DNA from: a virus
Virus record (IMG/VR): IMGVR_UViG_3300026484_000053
Location: 62,001 to 126,000 of that record
Reading direction: 5' to 3' (one strand)
Length of the DNA: 64,000 nt
Shown: in pieces, positions 2,636 to 30,943 of the stretch
Position numbering within the stretch: the stretch's first letter is position 1
How the letters are laid out: the number at the start of each line of letters is the position of its first letter
Made by a program: the position numbers and the translations under genes
Notes under the pieces: generated by a model
What the model saw: only the letters and a program-made list of their open reading frames with translations
Told to the model about the DNA's origin: nothing
Databases searched by the model: none

Positions 2636-3324
2636 AAAAAATTGGGAATTGAACTAAATTCTATGTTATGTTCTTCTCCGCAAAATATGCACTTAAAATC
2701 TCCACTTATATGAAGAGATCCTTTCTGCTCTTTAAACTGATCGTAAAGTTCATCAAATTCTTTGCTTGGAAGTGAATTAATAAACTCGTAACATTCATCA
2801 AACGTAAACGTGTTGTTATATTCTCCATTAAAGTCTACACCTTTTACGCTAAGTATAAATTCTACATATGCTTTTTCTACTTTGGTTTTTGCTTCGTCTA
2901 TACGTTTTGTGCTACGTGGCTTTTGCAGTTCTATTTCGCATTGTTGTGACGTTATTTTTTTCAAAGTACGAGCTTTAAACTTAACTACGTCTGATAATTT
3001 AACGTCAAATTCTAAGTATTGACCGCATTTAGGGTTTTTACATAGTCTTTCTATTTGGAACGTGTCGCCGATAGATATTTTACGTATCTCTATCATTAAC
3101 ATTTTCTTGTCTATATCATCAAGAACTATTTTTTTAGATTGTGGTTTAATACAAGGTTCTATAAGGCATTCGTACAGATCTTGTTCTGTTATCGTCTCAC
3201 CTTCTGGTAAAGACTCTTTTAATATAAGATAATCTTTCTCGTTCTTTGTAGTCCATGGTTTAAAATAAACTACTTGACTTGAAAGTTTTACCTTGTGGTT
3301 GTAAGATTGAGTTTGGTTGAACAT
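2626..3324 (-). CDS. Baseplate hub/assembly protein, gp26-like, 232 aa
   Basis: The pattern of a conserved acidic middle, a CxxxxC pair (near LCKNPKCGQ) and a C-terminal CxxC pair (KCIFCGEEH) followed by NFLW is typical of the T4 gp26-type baseplate family. In T4, gp26 is needed for hub assembly. The Cys pairs could bind zinc. A late box lies 26 nt upstream by predicted +1. The gene ends in a slippery heptamer giving a longer fused product. Family assignment rests on recalled similarity, not an alignment. Confidence 0.65.
   Translation of the reverse strand: MFNQTQSYNHKVKLSSQVVYFKPWTTKNEKDYLILKESLPEGETITEQDLYECLIEPCIKPQSKKIVLDDIDKKMLMIEIRKISIGDTFQIERLCKNPKCGQYLEFDVKLSDVVKFKARTLKKITSQQCEIELQKPRSTKRIDEAKTKVEKAYVEFILSVKGVDFNGEYNNTFTFDECYEFINSLPSKEFDELYDQFKEQKGSLHISGDFKCIFCGEEHNIEFSSIPNFLWT
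2635..2641 (-). promoter_or_regulatory. Putative -1 programmed frameshift site U UUU UUG
   Basis: The zero-frame codons AAT TTT TTG create the X XXY YYZ heptamer T TTT TTG on the minus strand, three codons before the zero-frame stop TGA (2628-2626). Slipping back one base puts ribosomes directly into the open downstream frame. The heptamer is a known efficient class. No stimulatory structure was modelled. Confidence 0.6.
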
Positions 3325-3355
3325 TAAGTTCCTTTCTGTTAGGTTTATATAAACA

Positions 3356-3363
3356 TATTTATA
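3356..3363 (-). promoter_or_regulatory. Late promoter box TATAAATA
   Basis: Exact T4-type late box on the minus strand, inside the end of the preceding gene. Predicted +1 near 3350 leaves about 26 nt before the ATG at 3324. Confidence 0.7.
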
Positions 3364-4003
3364 TGAAATAAGACACTGAACCTGTCGTAAATCCGTGTTT
3401 TATCACGTTTTCATTTGTACTGAGCGTGTTCATCATCGTAGTGTATTGCATCGTTTTTTTTTTCAAAAACGACTTTTTCCTACTTGCCATACCTCTGTAG
3501 TCGTATAAAAGTCCTAACATGATCCTTATTCTCGATGATTGAGTACTTTGATCTTCTAATTCTTTACCTGTAATACTTTTGTAAAGAGACTTAACGTCCA
3601 GCTTTAAAGAATTTACCCAATACGCTACGCTTATAGCCTGGTTGTTTAGTTCTTGTCTTTGTAACATATATGGTACAAATTCTTTTCTTAAATCTTCTGT
3701 ACTAAAAGATGATACATTTTTATAAGACATGATGAGCATTTGCCCTTTTTCATCATCTTCTGCTTCGTACTGTAGTAAGTGTAAAAGTTCATGTATAAGA
3801 CTGGCTTTAGAACTGTATGCTACGGTGTATGGTCTTTGCGCGTGTCCACCCTGTTCTATTTTAATAAGTTTTATCTTTTTAATTAGATGGTCTACATTAA
3901 AAGCTTCACAGAATGCGTTTAACTCAGAAAGTTCGAAGTCGTTAGTACTTATTTTTACGTATTCTCTGAAGTGCTTTATGCGCATTATGTGCTTTATGCG
4001 CAT
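3359..4003 (-). CDS. HELLH-motif protein, putative zinc metallopeptidase, 214 aa
   Basis: Residues 71-75 are HELLH within SLIHELLHLLQYE, the HExxH zinc-binding motif of zincins, set in a hydrophobic helix as expected. A possible third ligand is not obvious. Upstream SD AAAGG precedes the first of two ATGs created by an 18-bp tandem duplication (MRIKHI then MRIKHF). It sits between the gp26-like gene and the terminase, so it is co-expressed with morphogenesis genes. It may process virion or prohead proteins, but no substrate is evident; a non-catalytic use of the fold is possible. Confidence 0.5.
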   Translation of the reverse strand: MRIKHIMRIKHFREYVKISTNDFELSELNAFCEAFNVDHLIKKIKLIKIEQGGHAQRPYTVAYSSKASLIHELLHLLQYEAEDDEKGQMLIMSYKNVSSFSTEDLRKEFVPYMLQRQELNNQAISVAYWVNSLKLDVKSLYKSITGKELEDQSTQSSRIRIMLGLLYDYRGMASRKKSFLKKKTMQYTTMMNTLSTNENVIKHGFTTGSVSYFI

Positions 4004-4006
4004 TAT
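3971..4006 (-). repeat. 18-bp tandem duplication carrying the start codon
   Basis: The 18-bp unit GTGCTTTATGCGCATTAT is present twice back to back. On the minus strand each copy contains an in-frame ATG, so the gene has two start codons, but only the first (4003) is well spaced from the SD. Confidence 0.85.
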
Positions 4007-4022
4007 GTGCCTTTATAGACGT

Positions 4023-4427
4023 TTATATTTTAACTATAATAGACGAGTGACTAAGTTCTACGTCTGTAACTCCAGCACTTTTAAGATCTTCGAATGCTTG
4101 TTCAGCAAACTTAGATTTAAAAAGTTCGATTTCTATTTGTTCTTTACCTGGATGTACTTTCTTTATCTTAAATCCTGCGTCTCTAAGATATTGTTCTACT
4201 TGCTTAGCATCTTTAGCGCTTTCTTCTATGTTGGGTTTACTCATTTTTTGAAGTAATTTCTGCGCTACTGTTTTACCACCAAGTGCTTTAACTATTTTCT
4301 TGAATTCTTTTTCTAACGCAGCGTCTTGAGCAATATACTCGTCAGCGTCTTTAGAACCTGTTCTACCTTTAGAGCCAACTGGGCTCTCGTTTAATGAGAA
4401 GTCTAGTACTAATTTTTCAAATGTCAT
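4023..4427 (-). CDS. Hypothetical virion-cluster protein, 134 aa
   Basis: No family recognised. The protein is lysine- and glutamate-rich and alpha-beta in appearance, with a C-terminal half (from about residue 75, GFKIKKVHPGKEQIEIELF) that alternates strands and a helix. An exact late box lies just upstream (predicted leader 14 nt), so it is expressed late with the gp26-like and terminase genes. A stretch rich in Gly and Ser near residue 20 suggests a flexible N-terminus. Confidence 0.65.
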   Translation of the reverse strand: MTFEKLVLDFSLNESPVGSKGRTGSKDADEYIAQDAALEKEFKKIVKALGGKTVAQKLLQKMSKPNIEESAKDAKQVEQYLRDAGFKIKKVHPGKEQIEIELFKSKFAEQAFEDLKSAGVTDVELSHSSIIVKI

Positions 4428-4446
4428 GTTTATTCCTTTTTATTTT

Positions 4447-4454
4447 TATTTATA
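4447..4454 (-). promoter_or_regulatory. Late promoter box TATAAATA
   Basis: Exact late box on the minus strand; predicted +1 near 4441, 14 nt before the ATG at 4427. It lies between the terminase stop and the next gene. Confidence 0.75.
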
Positions 4455-4470
4455 ACAACTTATACTTAAT

Positions 4471-4530
4471 GCTACGTTTAATACTGCGTTTAATGCTGCG
4501 TTTAATACTGCGTTTAATACTACGTTTAAT
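4471..4530. repeat. 12-bp tandem repeat (GCGTTTAATACT type), five copies
   Basis: Five imperfect 12-bp units based on ACTGCGTTTAAT run up to and across the stop codon of the terminase gene, so the last unit supplies its stop. Confidence 0.85.
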
Positions 4531-6748
4531 ACACATCTTCCATATCTCTTCTCCAGCCTGCACTGTCGAAGGGTTCTTCTGAAGCATGTTCTATATCTGA
4601 ACTAAATCCCATGTTCATAATCTTACACATTTCTAATTCTTCTTGTTTTTGCTCTTGCGCTCTTTGCTCTAAAAGATCTATAAATCCCTTAAAGTCATCA
4701 AAGTTTTTTATATCAAGCATAGGTGCAAATAACAGTGCTGTAGCCATAACCATGTCATCTTTATAACCGTCTTCAGCACTGTAACTTCCGTTTTTCTTTT
4801 CTATAAAATTAAATAATTGCTCTATAGTAACATGATCTTTAAGAATAAGCATATCTTCTTCAATAAATTTCTTTAAAAGACTAAGTATCTGTCTTTTAGT
4901 TTTTGTAGTAGTTCTAAAACCTAATAAGTTAGCACTTGCTTTTTTCTTTTTCTTTTCACGGAATATCTCACCTTCGTACTCATAGTTGTAATTCAGTGTA
5001 TCAAGTACGCCTATACCAATGTTATTCTCTCCTACTATAAGGGCTTTATTATAATAATTACCAAGATCAAATAATCTACCTGGCATTACCATATAAGACT
5101 CTGATATGTTGGCTGCTGCTACTTCCTTAAAAGGTATTGACGTCACGTCAAATACATGGACCCCTGCATCATCTTGGCCATCAATTTTAGGATCGAATGT
5201 AAGAATATAATGCTTACCTGATTCAGGTTCTTCAAATATTCTTAGTCCTTTAAATATTTTATCTTGTATTATTTCTTCTTCTGGTAATGCATTAAGACAT
5301 TTTAAAGCTTCGGCTCCTATTAAAGTAGCTGAAGAACCGACGAAAGCATTTTTAAAATTCTGTGCGAAATGTATTTCTCCATTTTTAGCTACTTGCTCTT
5401 GTTGAAATTGTTCAGGAGATTTTTTCGAACCGTCTTTATTCCATCTTGGTACATCTTTCCAAGATGCTTCAGCTATTCTGTATCCGTTTACTCCTTCTCT
5501 TGCTCCCTTAACAATTTGATAGAAATGATTTAATCCATTAGCTGTACTACTAAATATAATTTGTGAATCTTTAAACGATGCCATAGCTGGAGTAACAGAA
5601 TCCAACATATCATGAAATAGATTAGCTTTAATAAAAGATGCCTCGTCTATATATGCATATCTAAGAGAGTAACCCCTGAATGCGTCGCTATTTGAAGCAC
5701 TAATAAGTATTCTATTGTTATTAGTAAGTTCTATGGATTGCTTATTCCAAGATTTAACCCCAGGTTGCATCCAGATTGGTAAGTTCATGTAAATATCTCG
5801 TATTTTAGTTAATACTTCTTGAGCTAGCGATACTTTATTTGCTGCTACACCTATATTAATATCTTCTTTTATAAGAGCAATCCATAGCAAATAACAAGCG
5901 ATAGTAACTGTTTTACCGCTGTTATGACTAAGTATTCCATCACTATAAAACAACTCGTCTAAAGAGTCTAAAGATATATCATACATGTTTTCAAATACAC
6001 CTGTATGTTCTACACTTATTACTTTTGAATACCCTTCAGTAGTGATTAACTCCTGATTTAAAGAATTTTCTAAATGAACTTCTTCGTTACTAGAGTTAAT
6101 CACTACATGTTTAGGAGATCCAGATAAAGTCATACCATTTTCTAAAGTTATGTTTAGTACTTCGTATTTATGCGTTACGTAAACGTAATTTATATTAGAA
6201 CTTTCAGATGTACTTAAATCTTTATTAGTGCTTATGTTTTTACAGTTTAAAGTCCTAGAACTTATAAACGTGTCGTGATTTTCGATTTTAAATTCATTAG
6301 TTGCACTGTCGTATAATTCTTTAATAGTTATTTCTTCGTTGTTAACTTTTAACTTTGTATTTCCTGCAACGCACTGTCTAGGAAAAAATACTACAATGTC
6401 TTCTCCAGTAACTAACTGCTCTTCTAGATTTAGTTGATATTCTCTAGGTTCTGGTCTTGTTATTCCTTCTTTAGTAAGAATTCTGCAATAATTCCTTCTG
6501 AAATAGAAATAATCTTCATAAGCTGATTTAATTTCTATTTGCTGCATTTCAGACATAGGTATTTTAACATCTGCGCCTCTTAATCCATTTATTCCTGAAA
6601 AACTTATCTTCTGGCCAAACGCGTCTAAATAAAAACCGTTTTCATCTTTTTGCGTATCAATTGCTTCTAATAATTGATCTTTTGTTTTGTTGTCTAGTTC
6701 ATTACCGTTATTATCTTTAGCTAGAACGTCATATAATCCTTTTGACAT
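4526..6748 (-). CDS. Terminase large subunit (gp17-like) interrupted by a mini-intein
   Basis: The packaging motor ATPase-nuclease. The precursor is 740 aa; removing residues 126-276 leaves 589 aa, close to T4 gp17. Splicing restores the P-loop FFPRQ-SGKT. Walker B is YAYIDE, motif C is FSSTANG. The C-terminal nuclease has the acidic triad context TFDPK, VGEN and DGYKDDMVM. Before splicing the ATPase site is split, so splicing is needed for activity. Ribosome site GAAAGG precedes ATG. The 3' end lies in a 12-bp tandem repeat. The endolysin gene is upstream in the same cluster. Confidence 0.95.
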   Translation of the reverse strand: MSKGLYDVLAKDNNGNELDNKTKDQLLEAIDTQKDENGFYLDAFGQKISFSGINGLRGADVKIPMSEMQQIEIKSAYEDYFYFRRNYCRILTKEGITRPEPREYQLNLEEQLVTGEDIVVFFPRQCVAGNTKLKVNNEEITIKELYDSATNEFKIENHDTFISSRTLNCKNISTNKDLSTSESSNINYVYVTHKYEVLNITLENGMTLSGSPKHVVINSSNEEVHLENSLNQELITTEGYSKVISVEHTGVFENMYDISLDSLDELFYSDGILSHNSGKTVTIACYLLWIALIKEDINIGVAANKVSLAQEVLTKIRDIYMNLPIWMQPGVKSWNKQSIELTNNNRILISASNSDAFRGYSLRYAYIDEASFIKANLFHDMLDSVTPAMASFKDSQIIFSSTANGLNHFYQIVKGAREGVNGYRIAEASWKDVPRWNKDGSKKSPEQFQQEQVAKNGEIHFAQNFKNAFVGSSATLIGAEALKCLNALPEEEIIQDKIFKGLRIFEEPESGKHYILTFDPKIDGQDDAGVHVFDVTSIPFKEVAAANISESYMVMPGRLFDLGNYYNKALIVGENNIGIGVLDTLNYNYEYEGEIFREKKKKKASANLLGFRTTTKTKRQILSLLKKFIEEDMLILKDHVTIEQLFNFIEKKNGSYSAEDGYKDDMVMATALLFAPMLDIKNFDDFKGFIDLLEQRAQEQKQEELEMCKIMNMGFSSDIEHASEEPFDSAGWRRDMEDVY
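5921..6373 (-). other. Mini-intein in the terminase P-loop, 151 residues
   Basis: Block A begins CVAGNTKL (Cys1). Block B is LSGSPKHVV with His at intein position 89. Block F/G ends MYDISLDSLDELFYSDGILS then HN, followed by Ser as the +1 extein residue. There is no LAGLIDADG or HNH block between B and F, so it is a mini-intein that cannot home by itself. The insertion falls between RQ and SGKT of the Walker A motif. Confidence 0.92.
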
Positions 6749-6774
6749 TACTTTCCTTTCAATTAAAGTATATC

Positions 6775-6782
6775 TATTTATT
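6775..6782 (-). promoter_or_regulatory. Near-consensus late box AATAAATA before the terminase gene
   Basis: One mismatch from TATAAATA on the minus strand; predicted +1 near 6769 would leave about 21 nt before the ATG at 6748. The placement is right, but the sequence is not exact, so this is tentative. Confidence 0.35.
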
Positions 6783-6861
6783 ATGCAATGCTAACATTTA
6801 TGTAATGCTAGTATTTAATATTCTTTTAACGTTAATATGTTATTAAGACACTCTGTATTCT

Positions 6862-7305
6862 CTAAATAAGCTCAAAATGCGGTAAGTCATGGAAAGTTTG
6901 ATCTGCATATGTTTGATCTCCATCCCAATCTAATCCAAATCTTATTTTGTGGGTTATTTTACCTTCAGAGTATAGTCTTTGCGCTATACTAGATACTTTA
7001 CCCATCATAAAATAAAATCTTCTGCTATCGAGTTCAGTACCAGAAAAGGCATTAGTGCCTTTAACATATGGCATAATATCAACAGCCATAGACACTCCGT
7101 TTATACCTTGGTGTTTAGATCTTTGCGTAACGCCGTCTAATTTGCTGCGTCCTTCTTCGAATAGTTCTATTTGTTCTTTTATAGTTCTTATTCCGCAAAT
7201 AACTGAGAAATCGTAATATTTAATAAGTTCTTCAAGTATTAACTGAATATCTTTATGACATGTGTCTAACTTACTTTTTGAAGATTCTGAAAATGAATAA
7301 GCCAT
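6862..7305 (-). CDS. Endolysin, M15-family peptidoglycan peptidase, 147 aa
   Basis: The motif SKHQGINGVSMAVDIMP (H65, D76) and the final DLPHFELI (His near residue 144) match the zinc-binding H, D, H of L-alanyl-D-glutamate/VanY-type peptidases. No signal peptide is seen, so export would need a holin, which was not identified here. The start MAYSF at 7305 is chosen because the longer in-frame extension would run back through the tandem repeats of the upstream gene; it lies 4 nt after that gene's stop with AAAGAG upstream. Length fits single-domain phage M15 endolysins. Confidence 0.88.
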   Translation of the reverse strand: MAYSFSESSKSKLDTCHKDIQLILEELIKYYDFSVICGIRTIKEQIELFEEGRSKLDGVTQRSKHQGINGVSMAVDIMPYVKGTNAFSGTELDSRRFYFMMGKVSSIAQRLYSEGKITHKIRFGLDWDGDQTYADQTFHDLPHFELI

Positions 7306-7309
7306 ACTA

Positions 7310-7798
7310 TTACTCTTTAGGCTCTGAAGAGTCTTCGACGTCTTTTGTTTTGTCTGTAACGTCAGTAACGTCAGTAACGTCTTGACCATTATTATTAGAT
7401 TTTGCATCACTTTTTGCATCACTTTTTGCATCACTTTTTGCATTGTCTTTTTTACCTTTCGCTTTCATATCTTTCTGCTTTTGGTTGTCTTTAGCTATTC
7501 CTTCGTCGTCTAGTTCTGGCTCAGGATCTGCTTCTGCGTCTATTTCTTCTGCTGAAGCTTCGTATTCTACAGCTGTTGCAGCGTTAGACACGAAATCTTG
7601 TATATTCATAGTAAGTTCGTCTAAAGAAGATTGAAAATTTATCACCTCTTTTCTCAAAGGATTCTCTTCTCTCATAATTGCCACTACTGGCAAGAAACTT
7701 ACAGCTACAAGATTAGCCTGTATTTCTCTTAACTGTGATAATGCCTCGAATCTCATATCTTCATTTAATGGTCTGAAGTGTTCGTTTAATAATTTCAT
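7310..7798 (-). CDS. Acidic protein with low-complexity repeats, 162 aa
   Basis: No family recognised. Residues 1-75 look helical. The rest is disordered and highly charged, with an SDAK repeat (12-bp units) and a VTD repeat (9-bp units) near residues 115-145. It is the first gene after the bidirectional late promoter at 7828-7841 (leader about 30 nt) and precedes the endolysin. A prohead core or scaffold-like role is possible because the charge and disorder resemble small core proteins, but this is inference. Confidence 0.6.
   Translation of the reverse strand: MKLLNEHFRPLNEDMRFEALSQLREIQANLVAVSFLPVVAIMREENPLRKEVINFQSSLDELTMNIQDFVSNAATAVEYEASAEEIDAEADPEPELDDEGIAKDNQKQKDMKAKGKKDNAKSDAKSDAKSDAKSNNNGQDVTDVTDVTDKTKDVEDSSEPKE
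7390..7440 (-). repeat. In-frame 12-bp tandem repeat encoding SDAK
   Basis: GCATCACTTTTT units repeat about four times, giving SDAK copies in frame. A neighbouring 9-bp array (GTAACGTCA units, about 7355-7383) gives VTD copies. Confidence 0.8.
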
Positions 7799-7827
7799 TT
7801 GGTTGCCTTTTGCTGCATAACGCAGTT

Positions 7828-7841
7828 TATAAATATTTATA
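7828..7841. promoter_or_regulatory. Bidirectional palindromic late promoter
   Basis: TATAAATATTTATA is a perfect 14-bp palindrome containing TATAAATA on both strands (plus 7828-7835, minus 7834-7841). It sits in the 88-bp gap between the divergent genes ending at 7798 and starting at 7887, with predicted leaders of about 30 and 46 nt. Both genes have AAAGG-type ribosome sites. Confidence 0.8.
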
Positions 7842-7886
7842 CAGCTTGATACGAATTTATGCGTGCAGGTTTGCTAAAGGAATATT

Positions 7887-8402
7887 ATGAAACAACTAAG
7901 AATTTTAAAATCATCTGAAATACCGATTATAAGAGAAGAGCTACTAAAAGAGCAGCATATGAAATGTAAGATATGTAATAAAGATTGGTCTGCAGATGCT
8001 GGATTTAGTCTAGATCATCAGCACGGTAACAAATCTGAAAAATTTGGAGAAGACGGATACGCATTAGTAAGAGGAATACTTTGCAGAGCATGTAATGTGG
8101 AAGAAGGTAAAATATGGAATTCTATGAAAAGATTTGGATTTGGTACGTCAGTTGACTCCAGGATTGAATGGTTAGAGTCATTAATATGTTATTATAAGTC
8201 AGACAAACCAAAGATAAGTGGCGAATTACTTATACACCCAAATGAAGTTCCTAAAGAACCTATAATAGGTAAAAGAGAATTTAATAAGCTTAATAAATAT
8301 TTTAAAATAAAGTATCCTAATAGAAAAGAGCTGCAATACCCAAAAAGTAAGAAGTGGAATAATATACTTAAAGAACTAAAAATAGAAATGGAGCAAAAAT
8401 GA
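7887..8402 (+). CDS. Recombination endonuclease VII (gp49-like), 171 aa
   Basis: Zinc site Cys27/Cys30 and Cys66/Cys69 (KCKIC and LCRAC), the catalytic DHQH at 43-46, and VRGILCRACN followed by EEG are the endonuclease VII signature. RIEWLESLICYYKSD matches the dimerisation helix region of T4 gp49. It cuts Holliday junctions and branched DNA before and during packaging. Its stop overlaps the portal start (ATGA), so the two are translationally coupled, which fits a packaging role. Confidence 0.9.
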   Translation: MKQLRILKSSEIPIIREELLKEQHMKCKICNKDWSADAGFSLDHQHGNKSEKFGEDGYALVRGILCRACNVEEGKIWNSMKRFGFGTSVDSRIEWLESLICYYKSDKPKISGELLIHPNEVPKEPIIGKREFNKLNKYFKIKYPNRKELQYPKSKKWNNILKELKIEMEQK

Positions 8403-13809: not shown

Positions 13810-14010
13810 ATGAAACTTCAAACTTCTATTAATGGTACGTTAAAAGAGTATCTTCATCTTTTAATAGGTAAAAAATTCAAGAGTGCTTCAGGTAACATTT
13901 ACGAAATTAATGTTCTACCTTTCGCTTTTTATGCTATATCTTTTAATGATAACGTATTATTTACGTCTAACAGAGCAGATGTTATAAATGATTGGCTGTA
14001 CAGAAACTAA
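13810..14010 (+). CDS. Hypothetical protein, 66 aa
   Basis: No family recognised. It is a small protein with alternating hydrophobic strands, no Cys and no clear membrane segment. ATG follows AAAGG. The stop overlaps the start of the primase-helicase (TAATG), indicating translational coupling with a replication gene. Confidence 0.65.
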   Translation: MKLQTSINGTLKEYLHLLIGKKFKSASGNIYEINVLPFAFYAISFNDNVLFTSNRADVINDWLYRN

Positions 14011-16700
14011 TGTATTTAACAATTTTTAACGCTATTAAAAGCACTAACAAAGCAAATAAAAAGCCTATATCTCAATATGATGACGAGTCATTTATTTTTT
14101 ATAATGTTTATTGCGCATCCTTAAGACAGTGTTTTAAGGTTCTATCTAACGAATACATCCTTAGCCAAACCATAAATATTGACGAACCTTTAAAACTGAC
14201 TAGAAGTGTAAAGGTTTTAAAAGAATTTAAAAGTGACAATTTAGAAATACTACCATTAGATTTAGATTACATTTATACGCAAGAGATGTGTTTAAAAGTT
14301 ATACAGTTTTTTAAAGATATGAACTTTAAATGTATATTAGGTAAAAGTAGAGGATTTAATAACAAAGATAAATTTACTCTTAAAGGATTTATCGTACTAG
14401 ACATTAAAAATGACAGAGCAGTAATATCAGGATTGCTAAATTACATCCAAACTTTAATGAATGAATATGGATTAGAAGGAGTTGAGTTAGACTGTGCTAT
14501 TAAAACAATAAATTCAGTGCAAAGCCCAGTCTTAAATAATGATGTTTTATATATTAATGAGTCAAGTAAAGCAAGAGTATTAAATAACACAGACTTTAAT
14601 ATTATAGAAGTGCAGTCTTATAACGATACGGTAGTTGATTTATCTAGCTTAAATACTAAAGAATCAGCATTAGACACTTGTTTAGAAATATTTGCACAAA
14701 AAGGATTTACAGCCGTATCGCAAAGAGAAGATACTAGCATTAATTTTAGTCATCCAAGTGAGAAGAAGTCTAAAGGTGGTTTCTTCTTCTTTAAAGAATC
14801 ACCAACTATAATGCACCATCCTAATAGTGCAAGGACTATTAATATAGCTCAAGAATTTAAACGTACCGCTATTGGTAAAGCATATTTTATTGAACGTGGA
14901 AAACTTATACAGAAGAATATGTTAGAAAAACCTGATTATGGTATATTCGTAAATGAAAGATACCTTAACGTAGAGCCTAAAATTAAAGAAATACAGGATT
15001 TTGTTCATAAAGATACAGAAGTTTTAAAGATAAAATCAGCTATGGGTACAGCTAAAACGAATATCATATCAGCAGTTATTAAAGAAGCTCAAATTAAAAA
15101 AGAAAAGTTAAGAGTTATTTTAGTGTCTAATAGAGTAAGTGTAGCAAGAGATTTTGCTGATAAGTATGAAGAATATAATATGTCATATTATAAAGAAGTC
15201 CAAAACAGTAAAACAGAGCCTTTTAATCTTATAGTACAGTTTGATAGCCTTTATAAATTTAAAGTGCATGAATATGATATTGTCATTTTTGACGAGTTTA
15301 TAAGTCTTTTATTGCATCATCAAAGTCCGTTAGGTACGAATGGTAATTTAAACGCTGCAAAATTCAGAGTTTTATTAAATAAGAAAATTCTATGTTGCGA
15401 TGCTTTTCTTACTGGATACGAAGACGTTTTCTTTAAAGACAGAAAAATAGTACAGTTTGCTAACAAATATCGTGACGATGTTAAACTTATAGAGTATAAA
15501 GATAAAGGTAGATTTTGTAAAGATATAATAAACAATTCACTTTCACTTAAAGAAGGCGAACATATTAGCGCATCTTTTACTTCTTTAAATATGCTGAAAG
15601 TTGTACAACAGGAGTTACTTTCAAAAGATATAAGGGTAATCAGTCTTACAGGAGAGACACCAGATACTACTAGAGAATTAATTTATAAAAGATTTAAAGA
15701 AGACAGCCACAACGCATTTCAGGTTATACTTTATACTCCTACACTTACAGTAGGAGTAAGTAATGTTAATAACGTATTACAGCACTACCATTATGACTCT
15801 AGTATGAGTTGTGACGTTATTAGTTCATTACAAATGATTAAAAGATCTAGAACAGCTAAAGAGATACGATTTTATTTAGAAGATAAAAAGGCAATTAACG
15901 AAACGTCGGCTGCTAAACTAAATGAGATAGCTAAAAACAATATTGTAGAGTTCTACAATAACAGTGATAAAACTCTTCTAGTAAAATTAAATGAAGATAC
16001 AGGAGAGGTTGAACTTACTAAATTAGCTTACTATCTTAACAATATTAATGCTTTTAGTAATCTATTAAGCAACGATCATGCTAATGCTTTTAAAGTTCTG
16101 CTGAAATACCAATTTAATGGCGGCTACGATTCTGCTGAAATTAATGAAGAAATTTATGAATTCGACTATAAATCAAAAATAAAAGAGATTAAAACTAAAG
16201 AAAAAGAAAACGCTGCTAATTTATTGGAAGAATATTCTTATTTTAATTATACTGAGCAAGATGTTAACGACGCTAAGTTTAGTACTATAGAACTTAAAGA
16301 CGAAGAAAAAGTTATGCTGATGAAAGATAATATCCAAAAGCTATTTAAGCACCAAATACCAAAACATATTTTAAATGAACTTGTTAAGATAGATCAAAAA
16401 GATAATATAGTTAGAAAGATTAAAAACTACCATTTGTTTAGTGGCGACAAAGATTATTTAATGTATAAGCTTAGTTTTACAGTAAGTAATAATCTTCATG
16501 TTAGTAAGCGATTCGTTAAAAATATTAAGATAGCTTGTGAAGTGAAAGAGTTAAAAGACGCTTACTCTAACAACGATATAAAACGTATAGAAAGTAACAT
16601 ACAAGGTTTTGGAGAATTTATAAAAGAAATAGGTTATGTTAAACAAAGAAACAAGTACAGATTAGATAAAAGAATACTAACATATCTAAAGTATCTATAG
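14010..16700 (+). CDS. Primase-helicase-like replication protein, paralogue 1, 896 aa
   Basis: The central part resembles the superfamily 2 helicases of the herpes origin-binding-protein type: IKSAMGTAKT (residues 342-350), VSNRVSVARDFA, VQFDSLYKF, VIFDEF (D428, E429), then SASFTSL and TVGVSNVNNV, with QMIKRSRTA as the motif VI region. The Walker A has Ala where Gly normally precedes Lys. The N-terminus has PLDLD (about residue 85) and later LDCAIKTINSVQSP, which may be an archaeo-eukaryotic primase domain. Likely a replication initiator or helicase. The start is ATG 14010, coupled to the preceding stop. A paralogue follows. Confidence 0.7.
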   Translation: MYLTIFNAIKSTNKANKKPISQYDDESFIFYNVYCASLRQCFKVLSNEYILSQTINIDEPLKLTRSVKVLKEFKSDNLEILPLDLDYIYTQEMCLKVIQFFKDMNFKCILGKSRGFNNKDKFTLKGFIVLDIKNDRAVISGLLNYIQTLMNEYGLEGVELDCAIKTINSVQSPVLNNDVLYINESSKARVLNNTDFNIIEVQSYNDTVVDLSSLNTKESALDTCLEIFAQKGFTAVSQREDTSINFSHPSEKKSKGGFFFFKESPTIMHHPNSARTINIAQEFKRTAIGKAYFIERGKLIQKNMLEKPDYGIFVNERYLNVEPKIKEIQDFVHKDTEVLKIKSAMGTAKTNIISAVIKEAQIKKEKLRVILVSNRVSVARDFADKYEEYNMSYYKEVQNSKTEPFNLIVQFDSLYKFKVHEYDIVIFDEFISLLLHHQSPLGTNGNLNAAKFRVLLNKKILCCDAFLTGYEDVFFKDRKIVQFANKYRDDVKLIEYKDKGRFCKDIINNSLSLKEGEHISASFTSLNMLKVVQQELLSKDIRVISLTGETPDTTRELIYKRFKEDSHNAFQVILYTPTLTVGVSNVNNVLQHYHYDSSMSCDVISSLQMIKRSRTAKEIRFYLEDKKAINETSAAKLNEIAKNNIVEFYNNSDKTLLVKLNEDTGEVELTKLAYYLNNINAFSNLLSNDHANAFKVLLKYQFNGGYDSAEINEEIYEFDYKSKIKEIKTKEKENAANLLEEYSYFNYTEQDVNDAKFSTIELKDEEKVMLMKDNIQKLFKHQIPKHILNELVKIDQKDNIVRKIKNYHLFSGDKDYLMYKLSFTVSNNLHVSKRFVKNIKIACEVKELKDAYSNNDIKRIESNIQGFGEFIKEIGYVKQRNKYRLDKRILTYLKYL

Positions 16701-16781: not shown

Positions 16782-19403
16782 ATGCATGAACATAAAACTA
16801 AAATAACTTTATTTGACGGTCAAGGAGATACTAAAATTCCTTTTTCTACAAGAGAAGATGGATCTTTTATTTTTGCCACTCTAGAATTAAGTTACACTGA
16901 AATAGTAAAAGTTAAGCAAGATTCTTATTCCCTAGCTTATTCATATAATATACAAGAACCAATATTAACTCACAGAGCAAAATTATCAAACGTAGCGCCT
17001 ATAAATGATGGAGATATTGTAGATTCAATTACGTTTAATATTAAAGTCGAAGATATTAATATAGAAGACGCTATAAATGTACTTAGAAACACACAATATG
17101 ATATGATAGCACTAAAATCAAAGCAAGGATTAACTTGCATATTAAAAGTACAAATGGAACTAAAATATATTTACTACAGCATGATGGAACTTCAAAAATT
17201 ATTAGGTTCTCAATGTAGCATTAAAGTACCTAACATTTACGACATCGAGAAACCGTTTGAAAACCTTGAGGTACTTTACGAAAGAAACACTAATAAAGCT
17301 TTACATAATATAATGATAGAGAAAGAACTTGAAAACACATCTTCTATGACATTTATAGAGATATGTTTATCAGAATTTGAAAATATGGGATACGAACAAA
17401 CTAGCATAAAATCACTTAAAGGTAAACCAGGAGTGTTCTTATTTACTAAAGACCAGGATAAATTTCATTTTAACGAAGAATATCCCATTAAAATGCAAGG
17501 TATTTACGGTGCAAAATCTGAGTCAATATTTTATCTTATAAACAAAACAAAGCAAGGTAAAGAGTGGCTTCAAAACAGAAATAAAAAAGAACAGATAAAC
17601 GCTTTAGAAAATAAAAAATCTAAGAAAAGCAAAAATAATATCATAATAAACGAGAGATATCTTAAGGCTGAAGATTTAAAAGCAGTTACAAATAAATTCA
17701 TTCAAACTAAGGACTGCGTTTTAAAGATAAAATCAGCTATGGGTACAGCAAAAAGTGACGTTATTTATGATATTATAAAGCAAGCACATGAAGATGGCAT
17801 GAAGATTATAGTTGTTTCAAACAGAATATCAGTAGCGAAAGATTTTGCAGAAAAGTACAATATGGATATCTATCAAAATATGTACAACAGTTCTAATTCG
17901 ATAGTAGTACAGTTTGATAGTTTACACCGTTATAATCCAGCTGATTATGACTTAGTAGTATTTGATGAGTTTATGAGCTTATTGCTGCACCATAGAACTT
18001 CTTTAGGTACAAACAGTAACATTAACGCTATTAAATTTAAAATCCTACTCCAAAAAAGAGTAATACTTGCTGATGCCTTTCTTACTGGATACGAAGACGA
18101 GTTTATAAAAGATCGTAAAATTATACAGATAGAAAATACTTATAGAGATTGTACTGATCTTTTTAACTACTCTAATAAAGAGCACTTTATACAAACTTTA
18201 ATAGACGAGTCTCAAAAGTTAAAAGATGAAGAGCATATAAGTGCGTCGTTTACTTCATTAGCAGCATTAAAATTGGTATACTACTCTCTTAAAAAGAAAG
18301 GTGTAAAGGTAGTTAAACTAACAAGTGAAACGTCTGAAGATACAAGGCAGTTAATTTATAAAAGATTTAAGGAGCAAACGCATATTGCATTTCAGGTTAT
18401 ACTTTATACTCCTACACTTACAGTAGGAGTAAGTAATGTTAATAACGTCACTAAACATTTTCATTATGACTCTAGTATGAGTTGCGACGTTATTAGTTCA
18501 TTACAGATGATTAAAAGATCTAGAACAGCTAAAGAGATACATTTCTTTTTGCAGAATAGACAACTTCATAAAGACATCGATCTTGAAAGTATAAACAGAA
18601 GAGCTGAGCATAATGCTGTAAAATACTACGCTAATAAAGATAAAGCATTACTTTTAGATGTAGATTATGAAACAGGTGAGATGAAGCTTACACCTTTAGC
18701 GCATTATATTAACAAGATAGAAGTGTTTAACAATATCCTTATGAACAATCACAAGAATGCATTTTTAGTACTTCTATCTTACCAGTTTAATTCAGCACCT
18801 ATAGAAGTTAAAGGTAAAGTATCTTGGAAAATGAGAGATCTTACTAGACAAATAAAAGAAAAAGAATTACAAGACGCTTTAAGTGTTTTCGATAAATTTA
18901 AAGACGTTAAATTAAGTGATAAAGAAGTTAAAAGACTAAGATTTAAAACGTCAGAGTTATCAGATGAAGAAAAAGTAGCACAAATAAAACATGATATTCA
19001 ATCTATGTATAGCAAAGAAATTCCTCAAAAATCGCTAGACGAATTAACGCGTTTAGAAATAGAACAGAACTTTAAGTTTACTGATAAAGTTAAATTAAAT
19101 AAGATATTTCAAAACGAAGACGACAGTTATGCAAAATACGAATTATCTGAAGCTATAAGTAATAATATAGGAATGTTGCAAGATAATAATAAAGAGACAA
19201 TAAACTTTTTAAAATATCTTATTATTAACGATAACGCAGCATTAAAAGGATCTTATACTTTAGATGACATAAAAAGAATTGATTTCGAAAGAGGTAAAGG
19301 TTCTAAACTTGCTAATTTCTTAAAAAGCTTAGGATATACGTACAGCGCTGGTAAATGGGAAGTAGACCTAAGAGTTCTTGGTTATATTAAGTACCTTGAT
19401 TAA
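16782..19403 (+). CDS. Primase-helicase-like replication protein, paralogue 2, 873 aa
   Basis: Tandem paralogue of the preceding gene with the same helicase motifs: IKSAMGTAKS (about residue 320), VSNRISVAKDFA, VVFDEF, SASFTSL, TVGVSNVNNV and QMIKRSRTA. The variant Walker A (Ala before Lys) is shared. The N-terminal region does not keep the DLD motif of paralogue 1 and has diverged, so a primase activity may have been lost. Two stretches of the helicase core are nearly identical at nucleotide level to paralogue 1, including 62 perfect bases (18387-18448). A late box lies upstream. Confidence 0.68.
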   Translation: MHEHKTKITLFDGQGDTKIPFSTREDGSFIFATLELSYTEIVKVKQDSYSLAYSYNIQEPILTHRAKLSNVAPINDGDIVDSITFNIKVEDINIEDAINVLRNTQYDMIALKSKQGLTCILKVQMELKYIYYSMMELQKLLGSQCSIKVPNIYDIEKPFENLEVLYERNTNKALHNIMIEKELENTSSMTFIEICLSEFENMGYEQTSIKSLKGKPGVFLFTKDQDKFHFNEEYPIKMQGIYGAKSESIFYLINKTKQGKEWLQNRNKKEQINALENKKSKKSKNNIIINERYLKAEDLKAVTNKFIQTKDCVLKIKSAMGTAKSDVIYDIIKQAHEDGMKIIVVSNRISVAKDFAEKYNMDIYQNMYNSSNSIVVQFDSLHRYNPADYDLVVFDEFMSLLLHHRTSLGTNSNINAIKFKILLQKRVILADAFLTGYEDEFIKDRKIIQIENTYRDCTDLFNYSNKEHFIQTLIDESQKLKDEEHISASFTSLAALKLVYYSLKKKGVKVVKLTSETSEDTRQLIYKRFKEQTHIAFQVILYTPTLTVGVSNVNNVTKHFHYDSSMSCDVISSLQMIKRSRTAKEIHFFLQNRQLHKDIDLESINRRAEHNAVKYYANKDKALLLDVDYETGEMKLTPLAHYINKIEVFNNILMNNHKNAFLVLLSYQFNSAPIEVKGKVSWKMRDLTRQIKEKELQDALSVFDKFKDVKLSDKEVKRLRFKTSELSDEEKVAQIKHDIQSMYSKEIPQKSLDELTRLEIEQNFKFTDKVKLNKIFQNEDDSYAKYELSEAISNNIGMLQDNNKETINFLKYLIINDNAALKGSYTLDDIKRIDFERGKGSKLANFLKSLGYTYSAGKWEVDLRVLGYIKYLD

Positions 19404-24680: not shown

Positions 24681-27146
24681 ATGGCTGGTATTATAACAGA
24701 AAACGAAAATCTAGAATTTCATGCTAAAGGTGCTAATTCTAAAGTAGTTTTTAAAGAAAATGATGTTGAAATAAACGTAGCTAAAATAGAAGATGTACAA
24801 GCTGTTAAGACAGAACTTACATCTTACGTTTATAGCCAAGCTGCTAGTAACGTTATAGATATTAAAGGTGTTAGTACTTCTAACGTAGTTAAGACTAAGA
24901 ACCATGCTGTAGTTACTTATACTGGGAATGGCGACACGCAAACAATTGAAACTGGTATATCAAGTGTTGACTTTACTCAACCAAATAATGGAAGTGGCTT
25001 TTATAATAAAAGAGTTGCTGGAGGCTTTGCAGTTATTGCTGATGATGCTGTAGATTTGATAGATAGTACTAACGATACGAGTTCAGTGGATAACTGGACT
25101 GCTGTAAATGATGCTAATTTAAGTGTAAGTAATGGAGTGTTAAGTGTTAACGCTGATGATACTGATTATCCATACGCAAAAAGAACATTCACGCTAAATA
25201 AAGGTAGTTATGCTATAAGTTGCACTGCTGAAGGTACTGCACCAAAGTTAAAAGTAATGACAGATGACGATATAACAAGCATTACACCTTTAATTAGTGG
25301 TTCTATGTTATATATAATAAATGTGCCTAATGATGATACTAATTATGTAATTAGACTCGAATGCGGTACATCTGACGATGATGCTACAGCTACATTTAGT
25401 AACCTATCGATATTACCCGTAGCTGGTAATGGAAGTGGTAGTTGTGTTGCTAATACTAGTAATGTTCATTTTAAGAGTAGGAGTAGTGAAGGAAATAATC
25501 AAATATATGATGGGCTAAGAGGAGTTCATCGTAGAGTATTCTCAAACTTAACTAATGTTGAGTTCCACGATGACACAGACGATTTATCAGAATTTACTTT
25601 AAATGGTGTAGTTATAGAAGGTGCTCAAGTTGGTCAAAATGAATTAGACGAAACATATGTACTATACCAAACACTGTTCACTCATATCAAGTGGGGAATG
25701 ACTTCACATAATAAATTCTATGTAGAAGCATACAATCCTGTTACTAAAGAAGGTACGATACTTTATAGTGGTTCAGCTAGTGCTGGTCATCAAGTTCCTC
25801 ATAGTGCTGGGGTTGAGTTGGGTTATACTGTTGTTAAGAACCTAGTAAGTGCTTCACAATGGCGAGTCAGCATCAAAGGTATAGCAGAAAATGGAAAGAA
25901 GATGCTCTTGAATACGGATAGTGCTAAGGTCTCTACTGGGTACTATTCAAATATAACAAGCACAAGTATTAATGGAGTTCAAACAAGCGATAACTACATG
26001 TTATATTACAAGTGTAAATCAGAAACATGGACAATAGGTACTTATATTGGTACAGGTAGTACCGGTAATAAGATTATTACTACTGATGTTAATGGTAAAG
26101 AAGTTAAGTTAAGAGATGTTGTTATTAAGAGGATTGATGATGTTGGTGATTGGGGAGTCTATAATAGTGAAACCTTAGTTAGGTTAGAGCTTAACACACC
26201 AGACAAAGAGGCAACTGATGGATATAGAGCTATACTGTTAGATTATGGTTTTGTTTTAAACACTTCAGCTGCAATAGTTAACGCACTAAACGGGCAATAC
26301 CTATATATGGGATATATCGACACAAATGCTACAACAACGCCTGATGATTCATATTATATGAAACCAACTCATAGTACAGACCCATTAGCGATAAGTACAA
26401 CTACTTTAAATAGTGACGTTTCTATAAGCGTATCTAAAGACGCTCTTGGTTACAAAAATGTTCTTAAGAATTTCAATCAAGTAATAGACGCATCTCAATT
26501 AGAAGATGGTAAGTACTACGTAGGTATTAAAGAAGACGGTACTAATATGTTCGTTAAAAACAAACCGATGTACAGAGATTATGAAGCTCAATTTGCTCAA
26601 GACAGCAGATATGTTCTTAAAGAAGGTAAATGGTACCTTGCAGAGACTGCTGAGTTACTTATTAATGGTACATTTAAAGATGGTACTACTAATGGATGGA
26701 GTGCTGTTAATGCTGAAATAAGTGTTGAAAATGGTATGTTAAAAGTAGATGATAGTGCTGACTCTGGTAGTTGGAGTAGTGCTAGGACTAATATTTTATT
26801 AGAAATCGGTAAAAGGTATTCTATTTCTATAGGTAATTTTTCTTCAAACGCCACTGACGTTACTAATAAAGTACATATTAGTATTTACAGTGGGTACAAT
26901 TGTGGATTAATGGCTACGGGGGATGTATACTATCACCATAACGGAACATCTTACGCAGAGTTCGTAGCCACTGCCAGCGAAAACACACTCTCTGTCGGAA
27001 TTCACCATGAGGATATTGCATACTTCGACAATATAAGCATATACAAAACACAACCAACATTAGGAACAACACCTGAAGCTATTACATGGTTATCTAAACC
27101 AGTTCAAGTTGCTAACGGAATAATACAAGACTTACCAAGTTCATAA
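24681..27146 (+). CDS. Tail fibre/receptor-binding protein 1, 821 aa
   Basis: A modular adhesin. The N-terminus is a short attachment region, then a repeated module with VVTYTGNGDTQ and HIKWGMTSHNKFYVEAYNPV (about residues 330-360), shared almost word for word with the fibres at 28664 and 39773. Near the end, FDNISIYKTQPTLGTTPEAI is also shared. Beta-rich composition with many Asp/Ser/Thr fits a trimeric fibre. It is followed directly by a C1q-like protein and a DUF4376 protein, the same order as at 28664. Confidence 0.8.
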   Translation: MAGIITENENLEFHAKGANSKVVFKENDVEINVAKIEDVQAVKTELTSYVYSQAASNVIDIKGVSTSNVVKTKNHAVVTYTGNGDTQTIETGISSVDFTQPNNGSGFYNKRVAGGFAVIADDAVDLIDSTNDTSSVDNWTAVNDANLSVSNGVLSVNADDTDYPYAKRTFTLNKGSYAISCTAEGTAPKLKVMTDDDITSITPLISGSMLYIINVPNDDTNYVIRLECGTSDDDATATFSNLSILPVAGNGSGSCVANTSNVHFKSRSSEGNNQIYDGLRGVHRRVFSNLTNVEFHDDTDDLSEFTLNGVVIEGAQVGQNELDETYVLYQTLFTHIKWGMTSHNKFYVEAYNPVTKEGTILYSGSASAGHQVPHSAGVELGYTVVKNLVSASQWRVSIKGIAENGKKMLLNTDSAKVSTGYYSNITSTSINGVQTSDNYMLYYKCKSETWTIGTYIGTGSTGNKIITTDVNGKEVKLRDVVIKRIDDVGDWGVYNSETLVRLELNTPDKEATDGYRAILLDYGFVLNTSAAIVNALNGQYLYMGYIDTNATTTPDDSYYMKPTHSTDPLAISTTTLNSDVSISVSKDALGYKNVLKNFNQVIDASQLEDGKYYVGIKEDGTNMFVKNKPMYRDYEAQFAQDSRYVLKEGKWYLAETAELLINGTFKDGTTNGWSAVNAEISVENGMLKVDDSADSGSWSSARTNILLEIGKRYSISIGNFSSNATDVTNKVHISIYSGYNCGLMATGDVYYHHNGTSYAEFVATASENTLSVGIHHEDIAYFDNISIYKTQPTLGTTPEAITWLSKPVQVANGIIQDLPSS

Positions 27147-28663: not shown

Positions 28664-30943
28664 ATGGGAATTAAGATTAAAAGTCCTAATGGAGCACTAA
28701 TATTAGAAGCTCAAGATGGTGCAGATAACGCCACGGTAGTATTGCCGAGAGAACCCATAGCAACAGAAAGTCATGTTCAGACTAAGGTAACAGACGCTAC
28801 AACTATTTTAGACAGTAAAATCAATAATACACCAAGACAAATAGTTAGTAACGTACTGGTGAATAGTAATAGTGTAACTATAGATAATATAATAGTTACT
28901 AAAAATCACGCTGTGATTACTTATACGGGTATTGATGGCGATATATCAGTTCCAGTTGGTATTAATGCAGAATGGTTTACAGATTCAACTAATAGTTCAG
29001 ATTATTACTTAGATGGAGAAGAAGTAAAGCTACAGTCAGATGATAGTGTTATAGCTAGTGGAAGTTGTGTATTAAATTTAGTAAAAGTGAAAATCAAAAA
29101 GAGAAGTGGTGGAGATTTTGATGATGATAATTCTGCTAACTTTGTGTTTGATGGACTAAGACTTAAAACGGATGTTATTAAAACAGGCCAAACAGACGCA
29201 AGAGCAACAGTAGCGGGTATTGATTTTTCTGGTAGCAATATCATAATAAAAGGGAATGATGCTAATACTAATGAAATAGATAGTGAATATGTAATGGGTG
29301 TTACTTTATATACACATATCAAATGGGGAATGACTAGTCATAATAAATTCTATGTAGAAGCATACAATCCTGTTACTAAAGAGGGTATGATACTTTATAG
29401 TGGTTCAGGTAGTGCTGGGCATGAGATTAAACATAGTATGGGTGTTGAGTTGGATTATTTCGGTTATAAAAACTTAACATCTGCCATAGAATGGAGAGTT
29501 GGTACAAGATACAATGGTGGTACTAATAAGTATCTAGTGTTAAACACTGATGCTTCTATAGCTACTAATAGCGGACAGAATGAAAGCACAAACAACAGTA
29601 TTATATTCGGAACTTCTACTTCTTGTAATGCTTCAACTGATACCTACATAGCATACTACAAATGTAAATCAGAAACATTTACAATAGGTACTTATATTGG
29701 TACGGGAGCTAGTGGTAATAAGATTGTTACTACTGATGTAAATGGTAAAGAAGTTAAGTTACGAGATGTTGTTATTAAGAGGATTGATGATGTTGGTGAT
29801 TGGGTAGTACTTGATAGTGCAAGAAACGACGCTGATTTAACATTGAATGGGTCTGGAGCAGAAGAATCAAGACATAAGCTAAATTATACTACAGGTTATA
29901 TTGTAATTGATGACACTTCCACTTATGGTGGTGGTATTAACAAGCTAAACGCTCAATACCTATATATGGGGTACATAGACACAAATGCTACAATAACACC
30001 TGACGATAGTTATTACAATAAACCAGTAGATAGTTCAGATGTAGATGCAACAGACACAACTACAACAACAGCAGATTATACAGTTGATACCATTGTAAAG
30101 GATAGTACAAGTGGTAAGATGTATAAAGCTATCGTTGATATAACGAGTGGGGATTTACTGACTAATACAGACAAGTTTAAAGCACTAAGTACATTATCGA
30201 TAACAGATGGTACATTTATAACAACTAATGGTATTGATGGTCAAGGCTATATTCATTCAACTGAAAAGTTTACTGGAACTATTGATTTTAGTGGCGTTAG
30301 TGATGGACTTAAATGGGTAGGTAAAAGAGGTACTAACTTTGTATTTGAAGATAAGAAGCCTATGAATGGTTTATATACAAAAACAAGTGCTGATGATAAT
30401 AGATTAGTTAATATTGATGGTAAATTATATGATACTGTTGGTGGTGAACTGGTTGTAGGTGGTAACTTTGATACACAAGCTGATGTTGATTTAATAAACA
30501 GTACTACTGGTACAGTATCATTATCAAGTGGAAAACTAAGGGTAACACAAGATGGCTCAATTGGTGAAGCTTATACTCAATATATAGACACGATAATAGG
30601 AGAAGAATATATAATCTCTTGTAATGACATAGGAGGTACTGCTAATGGGTATTTTTTCCCTGTAAAATCAGATGATAGTTATTATCTATCGCTGGGCTAT
30701 AACACTACAGGAAACTTAAGTGGAACATTTATAGCGTCTGAAACAACTGCACGTGTTAAGTTTAGAGTTATTGATGGTACTGATGACTATGCAGAGTTCG
30801 ACAATATAAGTGTATATAAAATAAAACCAACACTAGGAACACTACAAGAACCAACAGCGTTCCTAAAGTATCCAGTTATGGTCGCAAGTGAAACACCTAT
30901 GCATATAGTAAAACCAATGACAAATAGAACAAGGAGAGTATAA
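28664..30943 (+). CDS. Tail fibre/receptor-binding protein 2, 759 aa
   Basis: Same modular plan as the fibre at 24681: an N-terminal attachment region (MGIKIKSPNGALILEAQDG), the HIKWGMTSHNKFYVEAYNPV block (about residue 216), TFITTNGIDGQGYIHSTEKF shared with the fibre at 39773, and a final FDNISVYKIKPTLGT. The N-terminus differs from fibre 1, so the two may occupy different positions or be alternatives. Followed by a C1q-like protein (TAATG overlap) and a DUF4376 protein. Confidence 0.8.
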   Translation: MGIKIKSPNGALILEAQDGADNATVVLPREPIATESHVQTKVTDATTILDSKINNTPRQIVSNVLVNSNSVTIDNIIVTKNHAVITYTGIDGDISVPVGINAEWFTDSTNSSDYYLDGEEVKLQSDDSVIASGSCVLNLVKVKIKKRSGGDFDDDNSANFVFDGLRLKTDVIKTGQTDARATVAGIDFSGSNIIIKGNDANTNEIDSEYVMGVTLYTHIKWGMTSHNKFYVEAYNPVTKEGMILYSGSGSAGHEIKHSMGVELDYFGYKNLTSAIEWRVGTRYNGGTNKYLVLNTDASIATNSGQNESTNNSIIFGTSTSCNASTDTYIAYYKCKSETFTIGTYIGTGASGNKIVTTDVNGKEVKLRDVVIKRIDDVGDWVVLDSARNDADLTLNGSGAEESRHKLNYTTGYIVIDDTSTYGGGINKLNAQYLYMGYIDTNATITPDDSYYNKPVDSSDVDATDTTTTTADYTVDTIVKDSTSGKMYKAIVDITSGDLLTNTDKFKALSTLSITDGTFITTNGIDGQGYIHSTEKFTGTIDFSGVSDGLKWVGKRGTNFVFEDKKPMNGLYTKTSADDNRLVNIDGKLYDTVGGELVVGGNFDTQADVDLINSTTGTVSLSSGKLRVTQDGSIGEAYTQYIDTIIGEEYIISCNDIGGTANGYFFPVKSDDSYYLSLGYNTTGNLSGTFIASETTARVKFRVIDGTDDYAEFDNISVYKIKPTLGTLQEPTAFLKYPVMVASETPMHIVKPMTNRTRRV

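What the first reader, a model, noticed from the sequence alone, without database searches (positions are those of the whole stretch)
5921..6373. Endonuclease-free mini-intein splits the P-loop of the packaging terminase
The terminase reads FFPRQ, then a 151-residue insert starting CVAGNTKL and ending SHN, then SGKT. Joining the flanks gives a normal Walker A motif. Intein blocks A, B, F and G are visible, and no homing endonuclease block is present, so it is a self-splicing element that cannot home by itself. Inteins in terminase P-loops are known; a mini-intein at this site could act as a switch delaying packaging until splicing occurs.
Basis: partly seen in the sequence, partly recalled or inferred. 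Interest (0 to 1): 0.7.

Follow-up and report, generated by a model that had tools for sequence, protein, structure and literature searches.

The report
Mini-intein in a phage packaging motor
The DNA-packaging motor gene of this uncultured bacteriophage carries a small protein insert that almost certainly cuts itself out and rejoins the motor around its ATP-binding loop; the same kind of insert at the same spot is already on record in Campylobacter phages, so it is a new example of a known thing.

Summary
Window 5921-6373 (minus strand) encodes a 151-residue insert, in frame, between FFPRQ and SGKT of a T4-type terminase large subunit (TerL). It is a contiguous, endonuclease-free intein. An intein N-terminal profile passes its cutoff, and a confident AlphaFold model (pLDDT 90.5) superposes on solved inteins (Z 19.9, 2.0 A over 145 residues). 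C1, block B H89, block F D132, H150-N151 and Ser+1 are present. Relatives have the same P-loop uninterrupted.
The kind is known. Campylobacter phages CP220 and CPt10 carry a mini-intein at exactly this position; their relative F379 carries nearly the same intein split by an endonuclease-like gene; Ackermannviridae carry one three codons downstream.
New detail: P-loop inteins at the two positions appear to form one lineage. The window's sister TerL (L012, 53% identical C-extein) has a split version at the downstream position. Relatives break the intein at one shared point; the window's copy is unbroken. No homing-endonuclease family passes its cutoff elsewhere in the record.
That unspliced TerL cannot package DNA is a sound inference. 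That splicing is a timed switch has no evidence here. Verdict: new member of a known kind, interest about 0.3.

The parts
6374..6748 (-). TerL N-extein (125 aa, ends FFPRQ)
   Evidence: PHROG terminase match begins at residue 31; aligned to CP220, CC_R7 and phiKT1024 TerL
6374..6382 (-). upstream half of the Walker A loop, PRQ
   Evidence: alignment to intact P-loops
5921..6373 (-). 151-aa mini-intein, C1 to N151
   Evidence: TIGR01445 over cutoff; intein fold, Z 19.9; family alignment
6344..6373 (-). block A, CVAGNTKLKV, with nucleophile C1
   Evidence: sequence, aligned to CP220 CIEANTKINV
6272..6304 (-). loop (about intein residues 24-34) where related P-loop inteins are broken, some with an endonuclease-like gene inserted; unbroken here
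   Evidence: F379, L012, L073, L019, L102 and PhiW-14 break here
6101..6136 (-). block B, GMTLSGSPKHVV, catalytic H89, Ser in place of the usual Thr
   Evidence: H89 conserved in all rows
5966..6022 (-). block F, around MYDISLD with D132
   Evidence: D132 invariant
5921..5944 (-). block G, SDGILSHN (H150, N151)
4526..5920 (-). TerL C-extein, begins SGKTVTIACYLLW (Ser+1, rest of Walker A), ATPase and nuclease domains
   Evidence: Terminase_6N 9e-17; extein tree
5909..5920 (-). downstream half of the Walker A loop, SGKT; the Ser is also the +1 splicing nucleophile

Best explanation
The insert is a contiguous class-1-type mini-intein lying in the Walker A loop of a T4-type phage terminase large subunit. 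The precursor is translated as one 740-residue chain; the Hint domain folds, C1 and Ser+1 carry out the acyl shifts, N151 cyclises with help from H150, and the P-loop PRQ-SGKT is sealed, giving a 589-residue active terminase. The precursor should be unable to hydrolyse ATP and hence unable to package DNA, so splicing is obligatory for the phage. The element carries no endonuclease and is most likely an old resident kept because only a precise deletion would remove it without destroying TerL. It belongs to a lineage of TerL P-loop inteins that occupies two positions three codons apart and occurs contiguous, split, or split with a homing-endonuclease-like gene in the break. Shown: position, anatomy, fold, relatives, intact sites. 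Inferred from known intein chemistry: splicing, dependence of packaging on splicing, and reason for retention.
For: Intein N-terminal profile over cutoff. AlphaFold model pLDDT 90.5 / pTM 0.84 matches inteins and other Hint proteins at the top. C1, H89, D132, H150, N151 conserved across the family, except the terminal His-Asn of L102, and Ser+1. Same insertion point occupied in CP220, CPt10 and F379, with 35% intein and 37% extein identity to CP220. Intact sites in relatives: phiKT1024, CC_R7, L013-L017. Intein tree groups the P-loop TerL inteins of both positions against other-site TerL and NrdA inteins, 93/97. Extein tree shows at least 6 changes of intein presence, and window and L012 are sister TerLs (100/99) with different intein positions. 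No endonuclease family over cutoff in the record.
Against: No splicing assay. Block B Thr is replaced by Ser; this is common in the family (Ser or Ala) and those copies must splice if their phages are viable, but that is indirect. Pfam PF14890 is below its cutoff. The window intein sits on a long branch (1.6-1.8 changes per column), so its exact placement is unsure.
Confidence: 0.93

Rival explanations
1. Regulatory mini-intein: splicing of the TerL precursor is slow or conditional, so packaging is held back until late infection or until a host signal permits splicing.
For: It lies in the P-loop and has no endonuclease, like the RadA and mycobacterial DnaB mini-inteins whose splicing is conditional (PMC5790916, PMC6195587). 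TerL inteins of similar length are also widespread in Ackermannviridae records.
Against: No sequence signature of regulation was found; one non-catalytic Cys (C44) is not evidence. Tested mycobacteriophage TerL inteins splice quickly (PMC5050341). Intact-site relatives manage without it. Retention is explained equally well by the need for precise deletion.
Confidence: 0.1
2. Collaborative homing: the intein is mobilised in trans by a free-standing endonuclease, for example the nearby endonuclease VII gene (7887-8402) or one in an unsequenced part of the genome.
For: F379, L073, L019 and L102 carry endonuclease-like genes inside the split version. LIMEstone1 has a NUMOD3 endonuclease just upstream of its intein-bearing TerL. 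ICP1 shows a similar terminase arrangement with an intron (PMC10448857).
Against: The nearby gene is an ordinary T4 gp49-type resolvase (PHROG 423, 1e-24; Pfam Endonuclease_7) and is absent from the same place in L012. No other endonuclease family over cutoff was found. The window intein is divergent, not recently copied.
Confidence: 0.06
3. Inactivated or non-splicing Hint domain tolerated as an ordinary insertion in TerL.
For: Block B Thr is replaced; the branch is long.
Against: All junction and catalytic residues are intact, the insert splits the ATP-binding loop of an essential enzyme, the reading frame is open, and the fold is predicted with high confidence.
Confidence: 0.02

Closest known systems
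TerL mini-intein of Campylobacter phages CP220 / CPt10; the TerL intein plus endonuclease gene of IBB_35 was reported in PMC3322345
   Same: Same insertion point (PRQ|C...SHN|S), contiguous, 145 aa against 151 aa, no endonuclease domain; same clade in the intein tree
   Different: 35% intein identity; different, uncultured phage. Their close relative F379 carries nearly the same intein broken by an endonuclease-like gene
TerL inteins of Ackermannviridae (Vi01-like; phage Marshall TerL intein reported in PMC3853055) and Delftia phage PhiW-14
   Same: Same lineage by tree (PhiW-14 by alignment only) and by the [KR]KF[IV] motif; intein in the TerL P-loop without endonuclease domain
   Different: Inserted three codons downstream (RQSGK|C...SHN|T); PhiW-14 is split rather than contiguous
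Split inteins AceL-TerL and GOS-TerL (described in PMC11766414)
   Same: TerL inteins; short N-fragment (25-37 aa), as in the broken relatives here
   Different: The window copy is unbroken. Position relative to AceL-TerL could not be compared because its sequence was not in the libraries searched
Mycobacteriophage TerL1-a / TerL1-b inteins (PMC5050341)
   Same: P-loop inteins of phage terminases, two positions one residue apart; TerL inteins shown to splice there, TerL1-b among them
   Different: Different terminase family (Terminase_1) and different inteins; TerL1-b has an active endonuclease

Membership tests
Intein (class 1) | Hint fold | tested here: met
   Model pLDDT 90.5, Z 19.9 to PabCDC21-1 intein, 85 chains Z >= 8
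Intein (class 1) | C1 or S1, block B His, block F Asp, terminal His-Asn, +1 Cys/Ser/Thr | tested here: met
   C1, H89, D132, H150-N151, Ser+1; block B Thr replaced by Ser
Intein (class 1) | In-frame insertion whose removal restores a conserved host protein | tested here: met
   Intact P-loops in relatives
Intein (class 1) | Autocatalytic splicing | not testable with these tools
   Needs expression
Mini-intein | No endonuclease domain | tested here: met
   151 aa; whole length aligned to splicing domains
CP220-type TerL intein allele | Insertion between PRQ and S(G/S)K | tested here: met
   Alignment A1, pattern census
CP220-type TerL intein allele | Common descent with the Campylobacter inteins | tested here: inconclusive
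   Clade support 95/91 and 88/85 but unresolved, 59/88, when a long helicase-intein row is added
Split (fractured) TerL intein | Two separate reading frames | tested here: not met
   Single 740-codon ORF
Conditionally splicing intein | Splicing rate changes with a physiological signal | not testable with these tools
   No assay possible
Self-homing intein | Own homing endonuclease | tested here: not met
   No domain in the insert

The most novel reading that the evidence does not exclude
A single mobile intein lineage in the terminase P-loop has changed its insertion point by exactly three codons (RQ|SGK against RQSGK|T) within one branch of phages, and carries its endonuclease gene at an N-terminal break rather than the conserved internal position described for endonuclease domains within inteins. 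The window's copy is the unbroken, endonuclease-free state at the upstream position; its sister phage L012 holds the split state at the downstream position.
Probability: 0.25. Interest if true: 0.5.

Novelty: new member of a known kind. Interest (0 to 1): 0.3.

Why it matters
It gives a second, distant lineage for a terminase intein position that in the records searched here was otherwise seen only in Campylobacter phages. Together with its relatives it offers one protein site where contiguous, split and endonuclease-bearing states of a related intein can be compared. That bears on how inteins gain and lose endonucleases, how split inteins arise, and how an insertion point can shift. If splicing were ever shown to be slow in the native precursor, it would be a post-translational control of genome packaging; at present that is a guess.

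Tried and rejected
Chance or ordinary insertion: rejected by fold, junction residues and intact-site relatives. Group I intron instead of intein: the insert is an open frame with Hint anatomy and in-frame junctions; no Rfam search was run. Endonuclease VII at 7887-8402 as homing partner: rejected as an ordinary resolvase. Single-protein search of viral contigs found only one distant match; alignment searches were needed. Search of bacterial and archaeal genomes found only distant terminases in metagenome bins. L012 N-fragment tail as an endonuclease remnant: no match. The claim that the upstream position is nested inside the downstream one is not significant (AU p 0.22 for the alternative). 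PhiW-14 was labelled contiguous in the extein tree; one search shows it is split, which does not change the tree.

Full report
Observation. Terminase families match on both sides of the insert. The insert passes the NCBIfam intein N-terminal cutoff narrowly and falls short of Pfam's, so profile evidence alone is modest. The predicted structure settles it: pLDDT 90.5 and pTM 0.84 from a five-sequence alignment, top Foldseek matches all inteins, and VIA-align Z up to 19.9 with 2.0 A over 145 residues. Junction and catalytic residues are C1, S86-P87-K88-H89, D132, H150, N151 and Ser+1. The usual block B threonine is a serine; relatives have serine or alanine there.

Position and relatives. Campylobacter phages CP220 and CPt10 carry a 145-residue intein at exactly this point; CC_R7, a close relative of CP220, has the uninterrupted PRQSSKS, and Vibrio phage phiKT1024 has GRQSGKS. 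In Campylobacter phage F379 the nearly identical intein is broken after about 30 residues, and an endonuclease-like ORF (weak T5orf172 match, below cutoff) lies between the two terminase pieces. The IBB_35 genome paper already reported a TerL interrupted by an intein and an endonuclease gene (PMC3322345). Ackermannviridae and PhiW-14 carry the intein three codons later, RQSGK|C...SHN|T; phage Marshall's TerL intein was reported in PMC3853055. In a pattern census of 155 loci from viral and genome contigs (some loci overlap), 126 had an intact P-loop only; upstream-position inteins were seen only in Campylobacter phage records, and five loci had the downstream position.

Fractured relatives. The closest contig, L012 (C-terminal extein 53% identical), has TerL in two ORFs with a split intein at the downstream position and a second intein near Walker B. 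L073 has TerL in several pieces, with ORFs resembling homing endonucleases in the breaks. L019 and L102 show the same break with endonuclease-like ORFs. PhiW-14's annotated gp17 starts inside its intein; the 43-residue N-fragment precedes two stop codons and is not annotated. In all of these the break falls just before a shared [KR]KF[IV]-like motif, which places it at about residues 24-34 of the window's intein, where the chain is unbroken.

Trees. P-loop TerL inteins of both positions form one side of a branch against TerL inteins at other sites and NrdA inteins (93/97; 83/97 with more long rows, where one P-loop intein of another protein joins them). The window intein groups with the Campylobacter ones at 95/91 and 88/85, but falls into an unresolved fork when a helicase intein is added. 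A tree holding the downstream-position inteins together is not rejected (AU p 0.22), so the direction of the shift is open. The extein tree puts window and L012 together (100/99) and needs at least six changes of intein presence. Identities point to horizontal movement of the split, downstream form: L019 against L012 is 58.6% in the intein and 35.3% in the extein. The window intein is 37% against L012's while the exteins are 53%, which fits an old resident or a separate arrival.

Endonucleases in the same genome. The window lies in a 193.7-kb virus record. Searches with T5orf172, HNH_3, LAGLIDADG_3 and NUMOD3 found nothing, GIY-YIG gave one match under its cutoff, and the endonuclease-like ORFs of relatives have no homologue among the record's ORFs. 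The record may be incomplete.

Mechanism. From established class 1 intein chemistry, the precursor should splice itself to a 589-residue TerL with an intact Walker A loop. This is inferred, not shown. The precursor divides PRQ from SGKT and should not bind ATP productively; the precedent is the P-loop RadA intein, whose presence disrupts ATPase function (cited in PMC6195587). Whether splicing is regulated is unknown. RadA and mycobacterial DnaB P-loop mini-inteins are conditional, while mycobacteriophage TerL inteins spliced quickly in a reporter.

Novelty. This is a new, distant member of a known kind. The most interesting point is comparative: sister terminases carrying what looks like one intein lineage at points three codons apart, in contiguous and split forms. 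Beyer and colleagues state that endonuclease domains within inteins sit at one conserved position and that a large insertion at the symmetry-related N-terminal-half loop would clash with the host protein (PMC6801210). In the relatives here the endonuclease-like gene lies near the intein's N-terminus but mostly as a separate ORF in a broken gene. Whether that is the same loop was not tested.

Noticed in passing
G000:C1:55045-58174 (L094, L001), outside the window: Ribonucleotide reductase NrdA is in two ORFs with the halves of a split intein at the break (CVKGDTS...DDVLNIL* and MIKIERI...NNILIHN|C) and no endonuclease gene in the roughly 220-base gap.
   Followed up: partly
G000:C1:174049-176069 (L098 8049-10069), outside the window: A DnaB/T4 gp41-like helicase is in two ORFs broken at its P-loop (SHGGK|C... 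and ...ILHHN|T), N-fragment about 30 aa, no endonuclease in the gap. With TerL and NrdA this makes three endonuclease-free inteins in one phage.
   Followed up: partly
L073 (IMGVR_UViG_3300026518_000006) 3072-8196: Terminase in at least four pieces with two split inteins, ORFs resembling homing endonucleases in the breaks, and possibly a third, unexplained break (NINFKDEEVVLSEDD...).
   Followed up: partly
L012 3467-5650: Second, contiguous intein in the same TerL at the Walker B region (HILY|C...SHN|CDE).
   Followed up: partly
L102 (LR756500.1), TerL: Intein C-terminus reads SSQ|T instead of SHN|T: Gln in place of Asn and no penultimate His.
   Followed up: no
L006 (Vibrio phage Va1) 5872-9289: TerL in two ORFs at a different site (NFE|C...NHN|CNFLG); the second ORF begins with a nuclease-like (DUF559) region fused to the intein C-part.
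   Followed up: partly
L010 (MW074126.1, Campylobacter phage CJLB-14) 471-640: TerL P-loop followed by a scrambled intein remnant (PRQSSKSNTKINV*, then an intein C-terminus and SSKST again); possibly a mixed-population assembly error.
   Followed up: no
L008 (Delftia phage PhiW-14) 1501-3660: Annotated gp17 is only the C-terminal part; the N-terminal part with a 43-residue intein fragment lies upstream, unannotated.
   Followed up: yes
window 13992-16700 and 16782-19403: Two tandem paralogous proteins of about 900 aa, both with KIKSAMGTAK, helicase-like in appearance.
   Followed up: no
window 24681-27146, 28664-30943, 39773-42667: Three related long proteins sharing THIKWGMTSHNKFYVEAYNPVTKEG, probably tail-fibre or adhesin paralogues.
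   Followed up: no
L165 (CP070705.1, WOR-3 MAG chromosome): A relative of the T4-type terminase is encoded within a 2.3-Mb bacterial MAG chromosome; prophage or mis-assembly.
   Followed up: no
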